DNA from: Acidobacteriota bacterium
GTDB lineage: Bacteria; Acidobacteriota; Vicinamibacteria; Vicinamibacterales; UBA8438
DNA length: 9,771 bases
Direction of reading: 5' to 3'
Assembly: GCA_011523485.1 (NCBI GenBank)
Contig: WTGR01000099.1
Location: 1-9,771 of the forward strand
The position numbers were made by a program, and so were the translations under genes. Positions 1 to 9,594 of this stretch are shown here, one piece after another (positions within the stretch are counted from its first letter, which is position 1; the number at the start of each line of letters is the position of its first letter). A model generated the notes under the pieces. That model worked only from the letters and a program-made list of their open reading frames with translations, made no database searches and had not been told where the DNA came from.

Positions 1-911
<911 letters not shown>

Positions 912-919
<8 letters not shown>

Positions 920-1730
920 GCGGGGAGAACGCCGCGTACGCCACATCCTGAGCATGTCCGGCGGCAAGGACAGCACCGCCCTCGCCGTCTACATGCGCGA
1001 CCGCCAGCCCGACATGGAGTACGTCTTCTGCGACACCAAGAAGGAGCTGCAGGAGACCTACGACTATCTGGCCAAGGTAGAGGCGTACCTCGGCAAGCCG
1101 ATCGTCCGGTTGAACGACAACCGCGGCTTCGACCACTGGCTGGAGGTGTACGGCCACTACCTGCCGTCGCCGCAGATGCGCTGGTGCACGCGGCAGCTCA
1201 AGATCCGGCCATTCGAGACCTTCGTCGGTGACGATCCGGTGATCAGCTACATCGGCATCCGGGCCGACGAGCGCCGGGACGGCTACATCTCGTCGAAGCC
1301 GAACATCACGCCGCGGTACCCGTTCAAGGAGGACGGCGTCACCGAGCGCGACATCTACCGCATCCTCGATGACGCGGGGCTCGGCCTGCCGGAGTACTAC
1401 AAGTGGCGTACCCGTTCGGGATGCTACTTCTGCTTCTTCCAGCGGAAGGCGGAGTGGCTGGGACTGAAGGACAACCATCCGGATCTGTTCGAGCGGGCGA
1501 AAGAGTACGAGAAGACCGATCCGCAGGCCGCGCGGCGGTTCACCTGGTCCCAGAGCGAAAGCCTGGAGGAGCTGGCGCAACCCGAGCGGGCGGAGGCCAT
1601 TCGGCGGCGGCATCTCAAGGTGGTGCAGGCGCAGCAGGCGGCCCGTCCGGATCGTCCGCTGGTGGACGTGTTCGCCGACGCGCTCGACGAAGAGGACGAC
1701 CAGGAAGGATGCCTGATCTGTCACCTGTGA
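912..1730 (+). CDS. PAPS reductase-family PP-loop protein (DndC-like, compact)
   Basis: The 272-residue product has the PP-loop motif SGGKDS at about residues 16-21, which binds ATP in adenine-nucleotide alpha hydrolases, followed by an aspartate region (YVFCDTKKE) and GIRADERRD near 115-123. Cysteines occur in three places: RWCTRQLK (Cys92), SGCYFC (Cys171, Cys174) and the extreme C-terminus GCLICHL (Cys267, Cys270). In DndC and some PAPS reductases, cysteines hold a 4Fe-4S cluster used in sulfur transfer; the first three are my candidates. DndC activates DNA for phosphorothioation, and related short proteins occur in BREX type 4 (BrxP). This protein is much shorter than classical DndC (about 500 residues). 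The operon context with a DGQHR protein and helicase favours DNA modification over sulfate assimilation, since no cys genes are visible. Family assignment is strong; the DNA substrate is inferred. Confidence 0.88.
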
Positions 1731-1761
1731 GGGGCGGAAGACTTGTCGGCTCGGCGCAACG

Positions 1762-1773
1762 TGATCGCGATCA
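1762..1773. promoter_or_regulatory. Perfect 12-bp palindrome, possible operator
   Basis: TGATCGCGATCA is its own reverse complement. It lies in the 94-base gap between the PAPS reductase-like gene and the GIY-YIG gene, the only sizeable gap in the plus-strand operon. That position would suit a repressor site or internal promoter. Two or three palindromes of this length are expected by chance in a window this size, so the support is weak. No convincing -35/-10 pair is visible around it. Confidence 0.2.
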
Positions 1774-1824
1774 GCCAGCGGCAGAGTCTCCACGACGGCC
1801 TGTCGACCCGTGCAGAAGAACGCC

Positions 1825-2436
1825 ATGACGCGCAAGTGGGAGCTCCTCTCGGGTGCCGAGGTGGAGGATGCGTATGTGCATCAGGCCTCTCTGCAGGACC
1901 TGGTTCCGGCGTGCGAGGCGATCTACTTGTGGCGGCGTCGGTTGTCCGTGCCGCGCGGGGCCATTCACGACGGCCAAGAGTTCATGACGTGGCTCGAAGA
2001 GGCCATGCAGGCACCGATCGGAGAGATCCGAAATCAGCATCTGTCGCACTTCGCCCAGCTTGAGCACCTGACCATAAGGGGCCAGAAGCTCACGCCGGAA
2101 AAGAGCCGCCTGCTCTCCAGGTTCGCCGGTCGTCCGAAGATGAGGAAGTGGCTCGCGCACTATGTCCGCAGCCTGGCGCAGTTCTCGCCGCCGCTCTATT
2201 GCGGCGAGACCGGCAACTTGGCGCAGCGCACCCGGGATCACGTGAGCGCGGACACCGGCTTCGGGAAGCAGGTGCTGCAGCGGAAGGTCCCGCCGTGGTC
2301 AGAGTTGGAGCTCGCATTCTACACACTCGGCGACGCCGCAAAGGATGACGACCTCCGGGCGAAGGAACGCAGGACCCTGCTGGAGATCGTCACGACCGCA
2401 TTCTCGGTGGCGGGTTACGTCGCGCGCCGCGGATGA
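1825..2436 (+). CDS. GIY-YIG nuclease-like protein
   Basis: From ATG at 1825 the product has 203 residues. GTG at 1810 in the same frame would add five residues, and neither start has a strong ribosome binding site. The C-terminal half matches the GIY-YIG layout: AHY at 111-113 in place of GIY, YCG at 125-127 in place of YIG, then the typical ETGNLAQRTRDH stretch with Arg135 and His139, and a candidate catalytic Glu187 in LLEIV. GIY-YIG domains cut DNA by metal-dependent hydrolysis, in homing endonucleases, UvrC and some restriction enzymes. Residues 1-105 match nothing I know; they are helical-looking and could recognise DNA or a partner. The gene ends in an ATGA overlap with the DGQHR gene, so the two are translationally coupled. 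I infer the nuclease arm of the plus-strand system. The first motif is degenerate, so activity is not assured. Confidence 0.68.
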   Translation: MTRKWELLSGAEVEDAYVHQASLQDLVPACEAIYLWRRRLSVPRGAIHDGQEFMTWLEEAMQAPIGEIRNQHLSHFAQLEHLTIRGQKLTPEKSRLLSRFAGRPKMRKWLAHYVRSLAQFSPPLYCGETGNLAQRTRDHVSADTGFGKQVLQRKVPPWSELELAFYTLGDAAKDDDLRAKERRTLLEIVTTAFSVAGYVARRG

Positions 2437-4541
2437 CTGGACTCACGAACATGAATGCACGCAGGATCGTAGTCGATACCCCGGCGACCCCGCACTTCGA
2501 CTTTCTGTTCGGTAGATACCGTCTGTCGCCGTGGGTCATACCGTACTTCTCCACGATCATTCCGATAAGGGACGCGGCCGCAAGCCTCCGGCTCGCCGCC
2601 GATTTTCCCGGCTCGGATGACGTCAGGTGGCGGCTCGACGAGCTGTACCAGCGGGAAATCGACTGGCCGCGGGTCGAACGCAAGATCGTGCCGTATCTGC
2701 ACGCGACCGACCAGCCCCAGTTCTTCAACGCTCTTACGATCGCGCTTCTGCCCCTGGAGAAGGACCTCTCCGCACTGGATCGCTGCTTCGGCAACGCGCA
2801 CGAATGGTTGGCGCCGGAACTCAAGGACGCCGAGCGTTTCGAGAAGACGTTGACGGCCGGGCCGATCTCGTGTGGATTCTGGACTGCATGGTCCGAGCTC
2901 TCGCAGGCGGAGGCAAAGACCGGCCAGCTTCGGTGGAACCCCGACCAGGTGTTCGCCGTCGCCCTCGACGGCCAGCATCGGTTGGCCGCGATCAAGGAGT
3001 TTGTGAAGGAGAAGGGAAGACCGGATCGGCACATGGACGACACGTCGGTGCCGGTGATCTTCGTGGTCCTGGATCCCGCCTTCGGATACGTTGCGCCGCG
3101 ACGCACGGGGCTCGTGGAAGTGTTGCGGACGGTATTCATCGATCTCAACAAGCACGCCAAGATTCCGTCGCGGGCCCGGCAGATTCTCCTGGACGACAAG
3201 GACCCGGCGTCCGTCTGCGTGCGGGCGCTCATCGGCGGCGCGTTGTGCGACGGCACCGACGAGTTGCGCGCGCGACCCGCGCGAATGCCGCTCTCGCTCG
3301 TCGACTGGCACACCGAGCAGGCAAAGTTCGACGACGGGCCGTACGTGACGACGATACTCGTGCTCGACTGGGCGATCGCCGAGCTGACGGGAGCGAAACC
3401 CGTTAAGGACTTCACCGATTACGGCGCAATCCGGAAGCAACTGAACGCGCTGGCGCAGTCGCTCGCGATTGACCTGAGCGCAGCGCAGAAGCGGCTCGAC
3501 GAGCTCGAGAAGTTCGAGATGAGGCCATTCGGTTTCTCGGAGGGAGAGGACGGCAACGAGCTCGACCAGATCTCGCGTGCGTTCCAGCGCGTCTGGAATC
3601 CGGCATTCGCCAAGCTGCTAACCGAGTTCACGCCGTACCGGAGGCTCATAGAGTTCCGTGCGAAGGAGAGCGCATTCACGCTCGACTTCGCGAACTGGTA
3701 CCGGCTGCGCTGGCAGCACAAGAGGGACAAGTACGGTGGCAGAGCGACGGAAGAGTACAGTCAGTTTCTTGGCAGGCTTGCTACGAAGTCCGTGCCGGTG
3801 GGCGAACGACAACTCGGCAGAGTGCTGGAAACAATCGAAAAGGACATAAAGCAGGGCAACCTCGCCTTCAACGTCGTGTTCCAGCGCGCTTATTTTCTTG
3901 CCTTTGGTCAACTGCGTCCCGTCACGGACTGGCACCTCGACGAACTGGCGCCAGACGATGTGGACTTCGGCGAGTTGGACGAGGGCGACGCGAACGATCC
4001 GGAAGAACCCGAAGCACGCGAGGAGGGAGTGCCGGTCGGGGACCGCGTGACGGGTGACTCGATTGCCGAGCGTACTTTGCACCTGAAGGTTCGCGCTGAG
4101 CGGTTCGTCACAGCGATGAATGCTCTCGTCGATGCCGTTCCGAACATTCTGGATCCGGAGTGCACATTCACTACCCCTGATGGAGAGGAGCAGCGGTTCT
4201 GGCTCGGCACCTTTCTGACCGCGGATCGCGGGATCGATTTCACGCAGAGCGCATCGAGGCGCGGACAGGAGGTCATCTTCTGGGCCGTCGCGATGCAGAT
4301 GTACGACGAGCTGGTGGAGCCGGAGACGCACTCCGATTTCGATGACTTCTGGACGAGAGCGATGGAAGCGGACCTGAGCTTTACGAAGCGGGTATGGCGT
4401 AGTGTGAAGCGCTTCAGCGACAAGGAGACGTCTGCCGGAGGACGGATTCTCGCCGCGCGGGGCGAGCCGTTCGAGGTCGAGGAGAGCCGGAACGAGGCTC
4501 GGTCGAGGATGTCGTGGCTCTGGGACAATCTCAAGCTCTGA
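2433..4541 (+). CDS. Long DGQHR-domain protein (DndB-like N-terminal part)
   Basis: The 702-residue product carries the diagnostic DGQHRLAAI motif at about residues 179-187, followed by TVFIDLNKHAK near 233-243, the second conserved block of DndB/DGQHR proteins. DndB is a DNA-binding regulator of the dnd modification genes; other DGQHR proteins have unclear roles. Ordinary DndB is about 350-380 residues, so this is nearly double length. The extra C-terminal half includes an acidic linker at about 505-532 and a final part rich in Trp, Arg and Glu that I do not recognise. ATG at 2433 overlaps the preceding stop; ATG at 2451 is an alternative. The helicase follows 20 bases after the stop. I infer a regulator or targeting subunit of this system; the DGQHR assignment itself is firm. 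Confidence 0.85.
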   Translation: MTGLTNMNARRIVVDTPATPHFDFLFGRYRLSPWVIPYFSTIIPIRDAAASLRLAADFPGSDDVRWRLDELYQREIDWPRVERKIVPYLHATDQPQFFNALTIALLPLEKDLSALDRCFGNAHEWLAPELKDAERFEKTLTAGPISCGFWTAWSELSQAEAKTGQLRWNPDQVFAVALDGQHRLAAIKEFVKEKGRPDRHMDDTSVPVIFVVLDPAFGYVAPRRTGLVEVLRTVFIDLNKHAKIPSRARQILLDDKDPASVCVRALIGGALCDGTDELRARPARMPLSLVDWHTEQAKFDDGPYVTTILVLDWAIAELTGAKPVKDFTDYGAIRKQLNALAQSLAIDLSAAQKRLDELEKFEMRPFGFSEGEDGNELDQISRAFQRVWNPAFAKLLTEFTPYRRLIEFRAKESAFTLDFANWYRLRWQHKRDKYGGRATEEYSQFLGRLATKSVPVGERQLGRVLETIEKDIKQGNLAFNVVFQRAYFLAFGQLRPVTDWHLDELAPDDVDFGELDEGDANDPEEPEAREEGVPVGDRVTGDSIAERTLHLKVRAERFVTAMNALVDAVPNILDPECTFTTPDGEEQRFWLGTFLTADRGIDFTQSASRRGQEVIFWAVAMQMYDELVEPETHSDFDDFWTRAMEADLSFTKRVWRSVKRFSDKETSAGGRILAARGEPFEVEESRNEARSRMSWLWDNLKL

Positions 4542-4561
4542 TTGGCGAGAACGGTTCTTCG

Positions 4562-5881
4562 ATGAGCTTGAGGCGCAACCCGTACCATCGACTGCTGCGC
4601 GATCTCGAAGCCCACTATCCTGGTATCACCGCCGACTACGAGGGTGATCCGGAGGCGGCGGACGAGTCCGCCGAGGTGGCTGTCGAGGCGTCGGCGCGAT
4701 TGACTCTTCGCGGCGCGGAGGCGGCGCCGGAGATGTTCGACTATCAGAGTGATCTGGTGGCGCAGTTCGAATCGGTCTGCAGGTCGTCGCCGCCCTCGAA
4801 CGTCGCACTGCTGGCCCTCCCCACAGGTTCCGGCAAGACCCGGACGGCGGTCGTCGCGCTGTTGAGGCTGTTCACGAAAGGCCATGCGCGGACGGCGCTC
4901 TGGCTGGCGCCGACTCGCGAGCTCCTGTCGCAGGCGATCGCAACGGCGAGGTCTGCGTGGACCGCGTATCGGGCGGCGGTCGACGTCGAGCTCGTCAGGG
5001 CGGATCGGTTGCGCCGCTATCCGGACGATCTGGATTGCGGAATCCTGTTCGCGACTCCGCATCTGGTAGCTGCCAGAATCAAGCGGGGCGATGCGCCCAA
5101 CCCGGATATCGTCGTGTTCGATGAGGCGCATCACGTAGAGGCGCCGACGTTTCGACGTGTAATCGAGGAGCTGCGCAAGGCGAAACGACCGGCCGTCATC
5201 GGCTTGTCTGCGACGCCCGGGCGCACGGACGAGACCCAGACGGAACGTCTGGTCGATTTCTTTCAGGGGCGTTTGCTGCGAAGTGAAGTACTGGATCCGA
5301 ACCCTGTACGCGCGCTGCAGCGGCGCGGGGTCCTGGCAAGGGTCGGCTTCAAGGACATTCCCGTGGCGTCGAGAAGCCGCTTGCCGCGTGCGCGCGTGTC
5401 ATTGGAGGCGTTGTCTCTCGACACCGACCGGTTTCGCGCGGTCGTCCGGTTGGCGGCCCGCGTCTCGCGCGGGGGCCGCGGCTTGGTGTTCACGGTGTCC
5501 GTCGGCTACGCGCACGTGGCGGCAGCCGCGCTGCGGCGCGAGGGAGTGGCGGCGAGGGCGGTGTCAGCCTACAGTCCGGACGACGTGCGGCGCGACACGC
5601 TGCGCGACTTCGAGCGGGGCGCGTTGTCGATCGTGCTGAACAAGGCGCTGCTGGCGACCGGATACGATTGCCCGGCCATCGGGCACGTCATCCTGGCGAC
5701 ACCTATACGTTCCGCCATCATGTTCGAGCAGGTCGTCGGACGGGCGTCGCGGGGGCCGCAGGTGGGCGGCAACGCGCACTCCACGGTGTGGCAGTTCGAG
5801 GACCATCTCGCTATGCACGGCCTGCCGCAGTCGTACTACCGCTACGCCGACTACGACTGGAAAGCGCTCCGGCGCAAGTAA
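4562..5881 (+). CDS. Superfamily 2 DEAH-box helicase, compact
   Basis: The 439-residue product has the full SF2 set in order: FDYQ upstream of the core (59-62), Walker A LPTGSGKT (86-93), Ia APTREL (116-121), DEAH (187-190), SATPGR (216-221), LVFTVSV (308-314), ATGYDCP (365-371) and motif VI QVVGRASRG (390-398). It should be an ATP-driven DNA translocase or helicase. No nuclease domain is visible, so cutting would depend on a partner such as the GIY-YIG protein. A helicase family called the DNA phosphorothioation system restriction enzyme occurs beside dnd genes, and this could be a distant relative; I cannot confirm that by eye. I chose ATG at 4562, 20 bases after the previous stop. GTG at 4514 would add 16 unremarkable residues and overlap the upstream gene. 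It is the last gene of the plus-strand arm and converges on the HNH gene 59 bases away. Confidence 0.9.
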   Translation: MSLRRNPYHRLLRDLEAHYPGITADYEGDPEAADESAEVAVEASARLTLRGAEAAPEMFDYQSDLVAQFESVCRSSPPSNVALLALPTGSGKTRTAVVALLRLFTKGHARTALWLAPTRELLSQAIATARSAWTAYRAAVDVELVRADRLRRYPDDLDCGILFATPHLVAARIKRGDAPNPDIVVFDEAHHVEAPTFRRVIEELRKAKRPAVIGLSATPGRTDETQTERLVDFFQGRLLRSEVLDPNPVRALQRRGVLARVGFKDIPVASRSRLPRARVSLEALSLDTDRFRAVVRLAARVSRGGRGLVFTVSVGYAHVAAAALRREGVAARAVSAYSPDDVRRDTLRDFERGALSIVLNKALLATGYDCPAIGHVILATPIRSAIMFEQVVGRASRGPQVGGNAHSTVWQFEDHLAMHGLPQSYYRYADYDWKALRRK

Positions 5882-5940: not shown

Positions 5941-6864
5941 TCACAGGTCACCCCCGACCTCGCCGGGTGCAGCCCGCGCAGGACTTCGGAACACCTCCCG
6001 CCGATGCCAGTCGACGAATGCCGGGTCCGGCGTGTAGTCCGGGCTCTGGGGCCGGCGCAGGGGTTTGGCGTGGAAGTCCAGCAACCAGCGGACCGGCGCG
6101 CTCAGACCGTTGACCTCGCTGGAAATCAGGACGACGTAGTCGCCGCCGGCCGCTGCCGTGAGGCCGAGTGCACCGCGGTCGAACGCCTTGTGGTGGAATC
6201 CGCACAGGGCCAGGCCGTTCGGAACGGCGTCGGGACCTCCTGCCGCGTGCCACTTGATGTGCGCGGCTTCCAGGCCGATGGGATCGTTGCCCAAGCGCAC
6301 GTCGAAGTCGCACACGGCGCAGCGGCGCTCGTAGACACGCAGGACGTCGCGCCGGAATGCAGGGTCGCGCGCCGGCGCCGCGTCCCGCAGCACGGCGTCG
6401 CGGGGGATGCCGACAGCGCGACGGATGTCGTCGTGCAACGACGCCGGAAAGTGGCCGTCGAGCAGCCGTTTCGCTGCCTGCTTCACAAGTGCCCGGTCTG
6501 CCTGCAGCAGGGCATGGACGCTCTGGGGAAGCCCGCCGGGAACGTTGCGTTCGACGAGCCGGCGCTTGTCGACGGCGCCTCTTGGTGTCATCGGGTCGTG
6601 CTTCGGGATCTCCCAGAGACCGTCGCTGCACAGGTGGACGAACGGCAACTCCGGATGATGAGCGCGGCGCGGCGGCCCGAAGCGATCGAGCAGGTCGCCG
6701 AGTGGGCCGTCGATGTCGTCGCGGTACCCGCCGAGGCGTGGCTCACCGGCCAGAACGCGACCGAGCGCCAGCAGGAGCAGCAGCGGCTTGTGCGGCGCGC
6801 GCTGCCCAGCGCGCTTCCAGACGTTGAGGTGGTCGAGCCGGTCGAGGAACTCGTGGCGTTTCAC
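5941..6864 (-). CDS. SBD-HNH endonuclease (ScoMcrA-like, phosphorothioate-dependent), copy 1
   Basis: The 307-residue product has two parts. Residues 1 to about 150 resemble the sulfur-binding domain (SBD) of ScoMcrA-type enzymes: VWKRAGQRAPHKPLLLL (15-31), RFGPPRRAHHPELPF (61-75) and a GLP segment near 111. Residues 178-232 form a zinc-type HNH nuclease: CAVC (Cys182, Cys185), AAHIKWH with His202, Asn216, Cys221 and HH at 224-225. Such enzymes are type IV restriction proteins that recognise a PT group in DNA and cut nearby; ScoMcrA is the studied example. The GTG start at 6864 lies just inside a short AT-rich patch and has no clear ribosome binding site. All HNH residues I look for are present, so it appears active. 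A paralogue lies at 7448-8344. Family membership is confident; sulfur as the ligand is inferred from the family. Confidence 0.88.
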   Translation of the reverse strand: MKRHEFLDRLDHLNVWKRAGQRAPHKPLLLLLALGRVLAGEPRLGGYRDDIDGPLGDLLDRFGPPRRAHHPELPFVHLCSDGLWEIPKHDPMTPRGAVDKRRLVERNVPGGLPQSVHALLQADRALVKQAAKRLLDGHFPASLHDDIRRAVGIPRDAVLRDAAPARDPAFRRDVLRVYERRCAVCDFDVRLGNDPIGLEAAHIKWHAAGGPDAVPNGLALCGFHHKAFDRGALGLTAAAGGDYVVLISSEVNGLSAPVRWLLDFHAKPLRRPQSPDYTPDPAFVDWHRREVFRSPARAAPGEVGGDL

Positions 6865-6942: not shown

Positions 6943-7272
6943 TCAGCCGGAGGGCGCGTGCTGCTCGGCACGCTTCGGATCTCGCGATGTCCCGGACGCG
7001 CTGCGCATGACGCCTCCTTCGACAAGGCCCTCGAGTTTCGCCACCCGCTCGCGGATCTCGGCAGCACCCTGCAGCAACTGCTCGAAGCGCCGAACACTGT
7101 TCCGCTCGGCGTGTTCGAACCGCTCGGCACTGCGCTGCTCGGTACGCTCGAAGCGCTCGGCGATGCTCTTCTCCATGCGCTCGAAGCGACCGGTGATCCA
7201 CAGTACGGTCGCGAGCTGCCCACTGCCGAGCGTGATTCCGATAGTCAGGATCGTGATGATTTCCGGCGTCAT
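6943..7272 (-). CDS. Small membrane-anchored coiled-coil protein with 11-residue repeats
   Basis: From ATG at 7272 the product has 109 residues. Residues 3-27 form one hydrophobic helix (EIITILTIGITLGSGQLATV and beyond), probably a membrane anchor. Residues 29-72 are four near-perfect 11-residue units, each beginning Arg-Phe-Glu (RFERMEKSIAE, RFERTEQRSAE, and so on). That period predicts a right-handed rather than a heptad coiled coil. The segment IRERVAKLEGLVEGG at 73-87 continues the helix. A poorly conserved-looking tail follows. A TTG start at 7344 would add 24 residues but has little to support it. Proteins with one helix and a short coiled coil ending in an RVAKLEGL-type motif are common hypothetical proteins. 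It lies between the two SBD-HNH genes on the same strand and may be co-transcribed with them. I do not know its function. Confidence 0.62.
   Translation of the reverse strand: MTPEIITILTIGITLGSGQLATVLWITGRFERMEKSIAERFERTEQRSAERFEHAERNSVRRFEQLLQGAAEIRERVAKLEGLVEGGVMRSASGTSRDPKRAEQHAPSG
7057..7188 (-). repeat. Four 33-bp coding repeats (hendecad coiled coil)
   Basis: Within the coiled-coil gene, four consecutive 33-base units encode 11 residues each, starting Arg-Phe-Glu. At DNA level the GCTCGAAGCG and CTCGGC words recur, seen on the plus strand. Divergence between units shows the array is old rather than a fresh tandem expansion. The unit is a multiple of three, so copy change would alter coil length and not frame. 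Confidence 0.7.
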
Positions 7273-7301
7273 GGCCTGCCCCGTCGATTGTAGTCCCGTT
7301 C

Positions 7302-7324
7302 GTTCGTCGATTTCGTCGACGAAC
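7302..7324. repeat. Perfect inverted repeat, 9-bp arms and 5-base loop
   Basis: GTTCGTCGA (7302-7310) and TCGACGAAC (7316-7324) pair perfectly around the loop TTTCG. It lies 30 bases upstream of the coiled-coil gene start, in the gap before the second SBD-HNH gene. No T-run follows on either strand, so an intrinsic terminator is unlikely. A regulatory stem or protein site is possible. Confidence 0.5.
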
Positions 7325-7363
7325 CCGTCCCCGACGATCGACAAGCAAGATCAGGACCAGGGT

Positions 7364-7447: not shown

Positions 7448-8344
7448 TCACGGGCGTTCCGGCGACTGGAACACCTCGCGAACGTTCCACGCCAGAAACC
7501 GGACGTTCGGATGGTAGGTCTCGCGGATCGGCTCGCGGACCGCCTGCTTGTGAAAGCGGCCGAGCCACTCGTCGAAGCCGGTCGTGCCGATCGCGGCCTC
7601 GGAAACGAGCACCACGCTGCGCTCGCCCGGCGGCGACAGCGTAAAGGCGCCTTCGTCGAACAGCTTGTGGTGCAGGACACAGAGGGCGAGTCCGTTCTGC
7701 ACGTCGTCGGGGCCGCCCGCCTGATGCCACTTGATGTGGGCTGCATCGAGTGCCAGCGACCGGGCGCCGAGGCGAATGTCGAAGCCGCAGACCGCGCACC
7801 GGTGCTCGTAGGCCCGCAGCACTGCCCGGCGGAAACCGGGGTCCCGCATCTTCCGCCGACTCCCGGCGGCGAACTCGGGATCGAGGCCGACCGCGTGGAG
7901 GATGTCGTCGTGGCGTGTCTCAGGAAAGTGCGCGGCGAGAAGGTCACGCGCCACCTCGCTGGCAAGCCGTGGGTTCGCGCGCAGCGTGTCGTAGATCGGT
8001 TCGGGCAGGCCGCCACGGACGTTGTGCCGGAGGAGCGCCGTCTTGTGGGCGTCGCCGCTGGAGGTGACGGAAACGTCGCCGGCGCGGTCGAGCGCCCATA
8101 CGCCGTCGCCCTGCAGACGCCAGAACGGAAACTCCGTATGTATGGCTCTCCGCGGCGGACCGAATTCGCGCAGCAGTTCGCCGAGGCGCTCGTCGACCAG
8201 GCGGTACGACGCCATGCGGCTCTCGCCGCTCAGGCAGCGGCCGATTGCCCACAGCGCAAGGAGGCACTTGTGGGGTGCGCGCTGGCCTCTCCGTTGCCAG
8301 ACCTGGAGTCCCCGGAAGAGAGCTCGCACGTTGTCGGGAGTCAC
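7448..8344 (-). CDS. SBD-HNH endonuclease (ScoMcrA-like, phosphorothioate-dependent), copy 2
   Basis: From GTG at 8344 the product has 298 residues and aligns nearly position for position with copy 1. Both have QRAPHK at residues 21-26, which is why I prefer this start over GTG at 8353. The SBD part shows VWQRRGQRAPHK (15-26), EFGPPRRAIHTEFPFWRL (60-77) and the GGLPEPIYDTL segment. The HNH part shows CAVC (Cys183, Cys186), AAHIKWH with His203, Asn217, Cys222 and His225. About 40 of 55 residues match copy 1 across the HNH core, with less agreement elsewhere, so they are paralogues and not a recent duplication. Differences in the presumed DNA-binding half, such as PHKC for PHKP and EFPFWRL for ELPFVHL, suggest different target contexts. 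The open frame extends far upstream, but that extension runs through the antisense side of the ATPase frame and is not coding. Confidence 0.88.
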   Translation of the reverse strand: MTPDNVRALFRGLQVWQRRGQRAPHKCLLALWAIGRCLSGESRMASYRLVDERLGELLREFGPPRRAIHTEFPFWRLQGDGVWALDRAGDVSVTSSGDAHKTALLRHNVRGGLPEPIYDTLRANPRLASEVARDLLAAHFPETRHDDILHAVGLDPEFAAGSRRKMRDPGFRRAVLRAYEHRCAVCGFDIRLGARSLALDAAHIKWHQAGGPDDVQNGLALCVLHHKLFDEGAFTLSPPGERSVVLVSEAAIGTTGFDEWLGRFHKQAVREPIRETYHPNVRFLAWNVREVFQSPERP

Positions 8345-8541: not shown

Positions 8542-9594
8542 CTACCTGATCTCGAGGCCTTCTTCCAGAGCGGCCGCGAAGTGCTGGCCGTCGAAGCAAT
8601 CGACCGCGCTGGCCCCGTTGTCCTTGGTAGTGCGCAGCAGGCGAAAGTCGTCGGGATGCTCCCGGACGACCGGCAGCAGTGCGCGCAAGTACTCGAGACT
8701 GTGAGTCGTTGCGAACAGTTGGGTGTTCGATTCCCGGGCGGAGTGCAGGATCGCCGCTGACGCACGGCCCATGAGAGCGAAGTACAGGCCGTTCTCCATC
8801 TCGTCTATGAGGATGATCCCGCGTGAGAAGTGATGCACGGCGAGCAGGATGGACAGCATCTTGTTGATGCCGTCGGAGACCAGCGGCAGCGGCACCTTTT
8901 CGTGCACGGAGCGAAGCTTCGCGTGAACCATGGCGGTGCCGCCGTGGTACTCGACGCTCAGTCCTTCGATGAAGGGGAATTGCTTGCGGACGGCCGAGAC
9001 GACGGCCTCGTGTTCTCCCTTCTTGCTCAGCGAGGAGAATCGTTGACCGTTGTGTTCCGGGCCCTCGCGAAGCACCGGGGACAGGAGGATCGCGGGGAAC
9101 GTCTCGACCACCGCTCCGAAGGACAAACCCTGACTGGTAAGCGTTGACTGGCACGTGACGGCGTCACCGTTGGCGAGTCCGTATTCGAAGTCGATTGCAG
9201 CGTGCCGCACGTGTTCTTCAACCGGTCCCTTCCCGAACGGCAGGGTGGCGCCCGCCGGTGGACCGTAAGACACGTTCAGCGACCGGGTGTTCTCATCGGT
9301 CCCGACGGCACGCAGGGCGATGGTCGACGTCTGATCGAAATCGAAGAACAGGTCCCGCCACAAGGATTCGAAGGACCCGCGTTCCGCAGAGATGGAGACG
9401 CTGTCTCCAAGACCGCGCATCCGGCGTATCTTGAGCACCAGCTCCGGTCCGACGCTGGCGAGCAGGAAGAGCGCTTCCAGGAGGGCTGTCTTGCCGCCAC
9501 CGTTGCGGCCGACGATGACGTTGAACCGGCCGAGGTCGCGGAGATGCACGTCCTGGAAGCACTTGAAGTTCGAGATCCTGAGATCCTGAATCAT
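8542..9594 (-). CDS. AAA ATPase of the OLD/ABC type (AAA_15/AAA_21-like)
   Basis: The 350-residue product opens with the RecF/SMC-like start IQDLRISNFKCF. Walker A GRNGGGKT is at about 29-36. An ABC signature-like SDGINKMLSILLAV is near 239-252, Walker B IILIDEMENGL is near 259-269, and a switch histidine sits in ATTHSLE near 294-300. The stretch between about 60 and 230 is the usual variable insert. These ATPases form dimers that sense or clamp DNA and work with a TOPRIM or other effector, as in OLD, Gabija or PARIS defence systems. Here the next gene is only a 48-residue TOPRIM-like stub, so the ATPase may have lost its effector or been recruited by other genes. ATG at 9594 has no clear ribosome binding site and sits just after a GC hairpin. 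Family assignment is strong, role inferred. Confidence 0.88.
   Translation of the reverse strand: MIQDLRISNFKCFQDVHLRDLGRFNVIVGRNGGGKTALLEALFLLASVGPELVLKIRRMRGLGDSVSISAERGSFESLWRDLFFDFDQTSTIALRAVGTDENTRSLNVSYGPPAGATLPFGKGPVEEHVRHAAIDFEYGLANGDAVTCQSTLTSQGLSFGAVVETFPAILLSPVLREGPEHNGQRFSSLSKKGEHEAVVSAVRKQFPFIEGLSVEYHGGTAMVHAKLRSVHEKVPLPLVSDGINKMLSILLAVHHFSRGIILIDEMENGLYFALMGRASAAILHSARESNTQLFATTHSLEYLRALLPVVREHPDDFRLLRTTKDNGASAVDCFDGQHFAAALEEGLEIR

What the first reader, a model, noticed from the sequence alone, without database searches (positions are those of the whole stretch)
912..5881. Atypical phosphorothioate-like cassette: short PAPS reductase, GIY-YIG, long DGQHR protein, DEAH helicase
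A DndC-like sulfur-transfer protein and a DGQHR protein point to PT modification, but DndA, D, E, FGH and SspB-D are not in the window. Instead a GIY-YIG nuclease-like protein and a compact helicase sit in the same run of overlapping genes. This set does not match the Dnd, Ssp or BREX type 4 layouts as I know them. A helicase plus a separate GIY-YIG nuclease could be the restriction half.
Basis: partly seen in the sequence, partly recalled or inferred. Interest (0 to 1): 0.75.

Follow-up and report, generated by a model that had tools for sequence, protein, structure and literature searches.

The report
Unusual sulfur-DNA phage defence gene set
The window holds part of a bacterial system that marks its own DNA with sulfur, joined to a nuclease, a nucleotide-binding switch protein and a helicase that travel together in several kinds of bacteria and look like a restriction half not described in the papers searched.

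Summary
The 'DndC-like' gene is SspD (PADLOC, E 1e-116) and the open frame before it is the end of SspC (E 6e-42). So this is an Ssp (single-strand phosphorothioate) locus, cut off by the window start. Behind it come a GIY-YIG nuclease (203 aa; AF2 model aligns with UvrC, T4 EndoII, R.Eco29kI), a DGQHR protein (696 aa; N-terminal ParB-like fold plus an unmatched helical half) and an SF2 helicase (439 aa). In 9 of 9 public loci with a full-length DGQHR relative the order nuclease-DGQHR-helicase is kept, with SspD within 10 kb in 7 of 9: Acidobacteria, Acidimicrobiia, one Mycobacterium. No SspE, F, G or H model match is shown for the three, while true SspE, SspF and SspH proteins match. Best reading: a third kind of Ssp restriction module, a 'split SspE' gated by phosphorothioate. 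Its activity is inferred. A looser DGQHR companion stands near SspD in 8 of 31 sampled loci; the exact triad in 0 of 31.

The parts
2..919 (+). 3' part of sspC (ATPase of the Ssp modification complex); 5' end cut off by the window start, which opens with 13 AGCC units
   Evidence: PADLOC SspC PDLC02781 E 6.1e-42, profile 878-1101 of 1104, for the part from base 89; 54-57% identical to SspC ends in L001, L003, L004; repeat counted
912..1730 (+). sspD, sulfurtransferase (PAPS-reductase/ATP-pyrophosphatase family), SGGKDS loop and CxxC pairs
   Evidence: PADLOC SspD PDLC02782 E 1.1e-116; 83-86% identical to SspD of L001, L003, L004; start chosen by hand, motifs listed
1825..2436 (+). GIY-YIG nuclease, 203 aa, with a long insert between the GIY and YIG strands
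2451..4541 (+). DGQHR protein, 696 aa: N-terminal ParB/sulfiredoxin-type NTPase-like domain, C-terminal helical half without a convincing match
4562..5881 (+). compact SF2 helicase/translocase, 439 aa, no nuclease domain seen
   Evidence: Pfam ResIII E 1.5e-21 and Helicase_C 1.8e-9; PTGxGKTRTA, FDEAH, SATPGR (TATPGR in L008), TGYDCP and EQ..GR..RG kept in 10 of 10 aligned, window included
5941..6864 (-). SBD-HNH phosphorothioate-dependent restriction endonuclease, convergent with the operon; counted here by proximity only
   Evidence: NCBIfam NF045808 312.7 bits, cut-off 180; SBD structures of SprMcrA and ScoMcrA match by sequence
7448..8305 (-). second SBD-HNH endonuclease (start approximate)
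   Evidence: NCBIfam NF045808 307.6 bits, cut-off 180; ScoMcrA 5zmm E 4.7e-15

Best explanation
This is a phosphorothioate (PT) restriction-modification locus of the Ssp type. SspA/B/C/D (SspC end and SspD seen here, the rest presumably upstream as in relatives) put sulfur into one strand of host DNA. The three following genes are its restriction half, a new effector module. The DGQHR protein is the NTP-driven sensor: like SspE and DndI it uses a ParB-type fold to read PT, but no HNH domain was found in it. The nuclease sits in a separate GIY-YIG protein, so the pair is a split counterpart of SspE. The SF2 helicase moves along or opens DNA and brings the nuclease to unmarked phage DNA. Shown: gene order, conservation, kept active-site residues, folds by model. 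Inferred: PT marking by this SspD, sensing, complex formation, cutting. Whether PT licenses (SspE-like) or blocks (DndI/SspFGH-like) cutting is open; I lean to blocking, because PT is reported to stop the ATP-driven translocation of DndFGH (PMC11662687, passage).
For: SspC and SspD models match; SspB confirmed by model in L001, L007, L009. Nuclease-DGQHR-helicase order in 9 of 9 full-length loci, SspD within 10 kb in 7 of 9; in L007, a 6.04 Mb Mycobacterium aurum chromosome, all genes from the nuclease to SspD lie on one strand within 11 kb. 20 of 48 nuclease relatives share a longest-contig length with one of the 120 listed DGQHR relatives. Pairwise identities of the three genes and SspD correlate over the window and 7 loci, r 0.885-0.979. 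Active-site residues kept. GIY-YIG and ParB-like folds by model. SspE and DndI combine a DGQQR NTPase with a nuclease and sense PT (passages of PMC11662687, and PMC10952713).
Confidence: 0.6

Rival explanations
1. The DGQHR protein is a DndB-type regulator that limits PT modification or represses the operon; the GIY-YIG nuclease and the helicase alone are the restriction half.
For: Pfam DndB is the only Pfam family found for the window protein and three relatives. DndB is reported as a transcriptional regulator with a DGQHR motif (PMC4507180, passages), and a DndB-like protein binds ATP and GTP (PMC12704722, passages).
Against: The protein is about twice the length of the DndB profile (338 positions), with a conserved C-terminal half, and it stands between nuclease and helicase in 9 of 9 loci, unlike dndB at the head of dndBCDE (recalled).
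Confidence: 0.2
2. The three genes form a backup or suicide effector: they stay silent while PT is normal and destroy DNA when a phage inhibits the Ssp proteins.
For: Rakesh et al. propose this role for standalone nucleases at Dnd loci, GIY-YIG (URI) among them (PMC10853773, passages). SspFGH, DndFGH and DndI harm PT-less cells (PMC8092258; PMC11662687).
Against: In the window the genes follow SspD directly on the same strand, not at the boundary or on the other strand as described there. A translocase is more typical of direct restriction (inference).
Confidence: 0.12
3. The GIY-YIG nuclease and helicase serve modification or repair: nicking or opening DNA so that sulfur can be inserted, a variant of what SspB does.
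For: SspB nicking is needed for sulfur insertion (PMC8092258), and the module stands in line with the modification genes.
Against: Relatives that have the triad keep SspB by model (L001, L007, L009), and none of 31 sampled SspD loci has the exact triad.
Confidence: 0.05
4. Chance adjacency in a defence island.
For: The window is crowded with other defence-like genes.
Against: Same order in 9 of 9 loci, whose titles name at least three bacterial classes.
Confidence: 0.02

Closest known systems
SspABCD-SspE
   Same: SspC/SspD modification genes; ParB-type NTPase plus a nuclease as effector
   Different: SspE is one protein, DUF262 (DGQQR) with DUF1524 HNH; here DGQHR protein and GIY-YIG nuclease are separate, with a helicase. 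PADLOC SspE models match L052, L060, L069; none is shown for the window proteins
SspABCD-SspFGH
   Same: three-gene restriction module next to sspBCD
   Different: SspF has a Walker A motif and SspH an FtsK-like end (PMC8092258); SspF and/or SspH models match L050, L071, L075, L078; none is shown for the window proteins
IscS-DndBCDE-DndI
   Same: PT-responsive ParB-type NTPase and nuclease logic (PMC11662687, passages)
   Different: double-strand PT made by Dnd; DndI is a single DUF262-DUF1524 protein
PbeABCD / TIGR04095 PT-system restriction enzyme
   Same: SF2 helicase as restriction part
   Different: PbeA carries an HKD (PLD-type) nuclease domain (PMC10853773, passages); Pfam shows no nuclease domain in the window helicase, and no PbeC-type ATPase stands in the operon
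DndB
   Same: DGQHR motif, PF14072 domain
   Different: about twice the length, C-terminal helical half, GIY-YIG and helicase partners
BREX type 4
   Same: SspB, SspC, SspD counterparts (PMC12839542, passages)
   Different: needs PglZ and BrxL; neither is among the PADLOC rows shown for the window

Membership tests
Ssp phosphorothioate modification (SspBCD) | SspD sulfurtransferase | tested here: met
   PDLC02782 E 1.1e-116, profile 6-276 of 277
Ssp phosphorothioate modification (SspBCD) | SspC ATPase | tested here: met
   C-terminal part only, PDLC02781 E 6.1e-42, 878-1101 of 1104; the ATPase motifs would lie outside the window
Ssp phosphorothioate modification (SspBCD) | SspB nickase | not testable with these tools
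   not in the window and no whole genome held; present by model in relatives L001, L007, L009
Ssp phosphorothioate modification (SspBCD) | PT at CpsCA on one strand | not testable with these tools
   needs mass spectrometry
SspE effector | DUF262 (GmrSD_N, DGQQR) plus DUF1524 (GmrSD_C, HNH) | tested here: not met
Controls: L069 and L060 match SspE and GmrSD_N; GmrSD_C is below cut-off even in them
SspFGH effector | SspF, SspG, SspH protein models | tested here: not met
   none among PADLOC rows shown (same cap); SspF and SspH controls match; SspG had no control
Dnd modification | DndC equivalog | tested here: not met
   TIGR03183 21 bits against cut-off 290.4
DndB | DndB equivalog TIGR03233 | tested here: not met
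   32.5 bits against cut-off 328; the domain PF14072 is met, 50.6 against 29.1
GIY-YIG nuclease superfamily | Pfam PF01541 over its cut-off | tested here: not met
   15.2 bits against 22.6; 14.6 to 17.4 in L001, L004, L007, L009
GIY-YIG nuclease superfamily | fold and the Tyr, Tyr, Arg, His, Glu residues | tested here: met
ParB/sulfiredoxin-type NTPase | fold | tested here: inconclusive
BREX type 4 | PglZ and BrxL beside the PAPS reductase | tested here: inconclusive
   no PglZ or BrxL among PADLOC rows shown for nine window proteins (lists of two capped at 25); upstream not visible
PbeABCD | PLD nuclease fused to SF2 helicase (PbeA) | tested here: not met
   best PbeA stretches lie within helicase residues 72-283 (E 1.2e-18 at best); no PLD domain by Pfam
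SBD-HNH PT-dependent endonuclease (neighbours 5941-6864 and 7448-8305) | NF045808 over its cut-off | tested here: met
   312.7 and 307.6 bits against 180

The most novel reading that the evidence does not exclude
A third, unnamed class of Ssp restriction effector: a split SspE in which a DGQHR PT-sensing NTPase commands a separate GIY-YIG nuclease, with a helicase as motor, and the same nuclease-sensor pair with interchangeable motors (SF2, SNF2-like) is a common restriction partner of the many sspBCD loci now called orphan.
Probability: 0.45. Interest if true: 0.78.

Novelty: new variant of a known kind. Interest (0 to 1): 0.62.

Why it matters
Wang et al. 2021 found that 2,211 of 2,678 sspBCD loci have neither sspE nor sspFGH nearby and proposed either unknown restriction partners or true orphans (PMC8092258). 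A 2025 review names dndFGH with sspFGH, sspE and pbeABCD as the proposed restriction branches (PMC12707154, passages). This module gives a defined, testable candidate: three genes, named residues, clear knock-outs. It would also show that the PT-sensing ParB-type switch can be uncoupled from the HNH nuclease and joined to another nuclease fold.

Tried and rejected
Whole-genome context: no genome is held for the window, so genes upstream of SspC are not known. Viral contigs: 447 pattern matches, no relative. Phages: no match. Plasmids: two records, both DndB in Trichormus, over 29% of the query. SspFGH as the identity of the three genes was my first idea; rejected after PMC8092258 and by models. 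PDB by sequence: two weak, unrelated hits for the DGQHR profile (E 0.05 and 0.29), none for the GIY-YIG profile. Foldseek: no significant match for either model; the second aligner's rows carry the fold claim. The helical half of the DGQHR protein had no convincing match, which is no proof of a new fold. I built no tree of DGQHR proteins, so 'effector or regulator' is not settled by phylogeny.

Literature: searches (held CC-licensed PMC papers only). Of 20 papers listed (of 21) none held sspBCD and GIY-YIG together. Three of 20 held sspD and GIY-YIG; passages read do not describe this set. Xiong et al. 2020 and other subscription papers were not read. Papers seen: PMC8092258, parts 1-3 of 5; PMC10853773, outline, abstract and passages; all others cited, passages only, plus the start of the abstract in listings.

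Full report
WHAT IS THERE. The window (9771 bases, 66% G+C; 59-73% along it) has, by my choice of frames, five + strand genes followed by four - strand genes. The first frame is open at the window start; from base 89 it reads as the end of SspC (PADLOC PDLC02781, E 6.1e-42, profile 878-1101 of 1104). The next is SspD (PDLC02782, E 1.1e-116); DndC models score far worse (best E 8.9e-6), and the DndC equivalog gets 21 bits against a cut-off of 290. Bases 1-52 are 13 AGCC units; SspC-like sequence begins soon after them, so this may be a contig-end artefact or a real insert; I cannot tell.

Then follow the three genes of interest, with starts chosen by comparison with relatives: 1825-2436 (203 aa), 2451-4541 (696 aa), 4562-5881 (439 aa), gaps 94, 14 and 20 bases.

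THE HELICASE. ResIII E 1.5e-21, Helicase_C 1.8e-9. PTGxGKTRTA, FDEAH, SATPGR (TATPGR in L008), TGYDCP and EQ..GR..RG are kept in 10 of 10 aligned proteins, window included. Pfam shows no nuclease domain.

IS IT A UNIT. Nine (L001-L009) have a full-length relative (38-59% identity). In 9 of 9 a relative of the nuclease lies directly upstream and one of the helicase directly downstream (L002's nuclease is cut by the contig end). SspD lies within 10 kb in 7 of 9; in L008's genome it lies on another contig (C3, triad on C33), and L002's genome shows none; both triads lie near a contig end. The titles name Acidobacteria, Vicinamibacteria, Acidimicrobiia and Mycobacterium aurum. In M. aurum (6.04 Mb chromosome) nuclease, DGQHR, helicase, a 73-aa frame, SspA, SspB, SspC, SspD and a gene of the TIGR04096 cluster all lie on one strand (SspB by model; SspA and the TIGR04096 gene by clustering with scanned relatives; the desulfurase models were all below their cut-offs). 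In protein databases, 20 of 48 nuclease relatives share a longest-contig length with one of the 120 listed DGQHR relatives (of 489). Pairwise identities over the window and 7 loci correlate (r 0.885-0.979), while SspD (mean 66%) is far more conserved than nuclease (37%), DGQHR protein (47%) and helicase (46%). This fits a fast-changing restriction half, but vertical descent would also give correlation.

WIDER PATTERN. 25 of the 31 loci carry an SspD at 45% identity or more; but they were chosen by their DGQHR gene. In many distant ones the frame just before the DGQHR gene looks like a GIY-YIG protein: of 10 tested, 3 pass the Pfam cut-off (one, L029, in a locus whose SspD match is only 30%, probably Dnd), 4 are below it, 3 show nothing. 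The third gene varies: SNF2-like (L018 by models below cut-off; L019, L026 by clustering) or TIGR04095-like (L017, 343.7 bits, cut-off 600). For a fairer sample I searched SspD: 15 of 396 Acidobacteriota, 8 of 396 Actinomycetota and 11 of 398 Pseudomonadota genomes at E 1e-40 (phylum names follow from the titles of L001, L007 and L012). Of these 34, 31 loci were fetched, leaving out three found through the DGQHR protein. A DGQHR-motif protein stands near SspD in 8 of 31 (L048, L049, L051, L053, L058, L063, L065, L067), none in 23; the exact triad in 0 of 31. L054 shows SspD without SspB or SspC. Of the 8, a nearby GIY-YIG frame passes Pfam in 1 (L048), is sub-threshold in 3 (L051, L049, L067), rests on BLAST in L058 (to a family itself called by motif only) and on a motif in L065, and was not seen in L063 and L053. 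SspE models match in L052, L060, L069 and SspF and/or SspH models in L050, L071, L075, L078; these are positive controls for the models. Other loci show a helicase with a GHKL ATPase and a PLD protein, or a PbeC-like set. So the triad is a rare member of a broader DGQHR class, and sspBCD partners look more varied than the published branches.

KNOWN SYSTEMS. SspE: DUF262 plus DUF1524 in one protein, PT-stimulated NTPase, nicking (PMC10952713). DndI: same architecture, PT-stimulated ATPase that releases it from self DNA (PMC11662687). SspFGH damages non-PT DNA (PMC8092258). The window triad matches none by the models shown. By logic it resembles SspE cut in two, with a helicase added. DndB-like regulation is the main rival (PMC4507180; PMC12704722).

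NEIGHBOURS. Two SBD-HNH genes face the operon. Such enzymes cut PT-DNA and are seldom near dnd genes, under 3.6% (PMC7461809), so two beside an Ssp locus is a puzzle. A likely answer: the SBD of SprMcrA does not bind CpsCA (PMC7470945; PMC9521924), so the pair may guard against Dnd-type foreign DNA. Aligned with SprMcrA, the protein at 5941-6864 has H-K and L-P where the sulfur pocket has Y31-Q32 and Y78-P79; aligned with ScoMcrA, the one at 7448-8305 has H-K for H-R and F-P for Y-P. SBD-HNH relatives also lie near L009, L010, L018, L026, L028 and L053.

VERDICT. It is a new variant of a known kind: an Ssp PT system with a restriction module that I did not find in the papers searched. Mechanism inferred, confidence 0.6.

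Noticed in passing
window 5941-6864 and 7448-8305, - strand: Two SBD-HNH (PT-dependent) endonuclease genes beside a PT-making locus, which would be self-harmful if they bound the host's own PT; similar genes near Ssp loci L009, L010, L018, L026, L028 and L053.
   Followed up: partly
window 8542-9594, - strand: AAA_21/AbiLi-like ATPase gene (PADLOC AbiLi E 1.5e-44), probably another defence gene.
   Followed up: no
window 6943-7344, - strand: Small 133-aa frame with a likely membrane stretch and coiled coil (by eye) between the two HNH genes; no family over its cut-off.
   Followed up: no
window 1-52: 13 AGCC units at the very start, reading in frame into SspC; contig-end artefact or real repeat not decided.
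   Followed up: partly
L049, L068, L069, L070, L073, L076, L077: Another recurring set near sspBCD: SF2 helicase of about 545 aa, a protein of about 600 aa (GHKL ATPase by Pfam in L049) and one of about 305-325 aa (PLD-type by Pfam in L070); members other than L049 and L070 judged by size and BLAST.
   Followed up: partly
L064, L065, L074: sspBCD followed by a helicase similar to the TIGR04095-like protein of L017 and, by model in L064, a PbeC-like ATPase: Pbe-type genes joined to Ssp instead of Dnd.
   Followed up: partly
L001 6419-7864; same cluster in L003, L007, L009: TIGR04096 PT-associated putative methyltransferase near Ssp genes (model match tested for L001; others by clustering); not between SspD and the nuclease in the window.
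   Followed up: no
L007 4396-9057: DruE-like (Druantia) gene directly before the triad in Mycobacterium aurum (E 4e-185).
   Followed up: no
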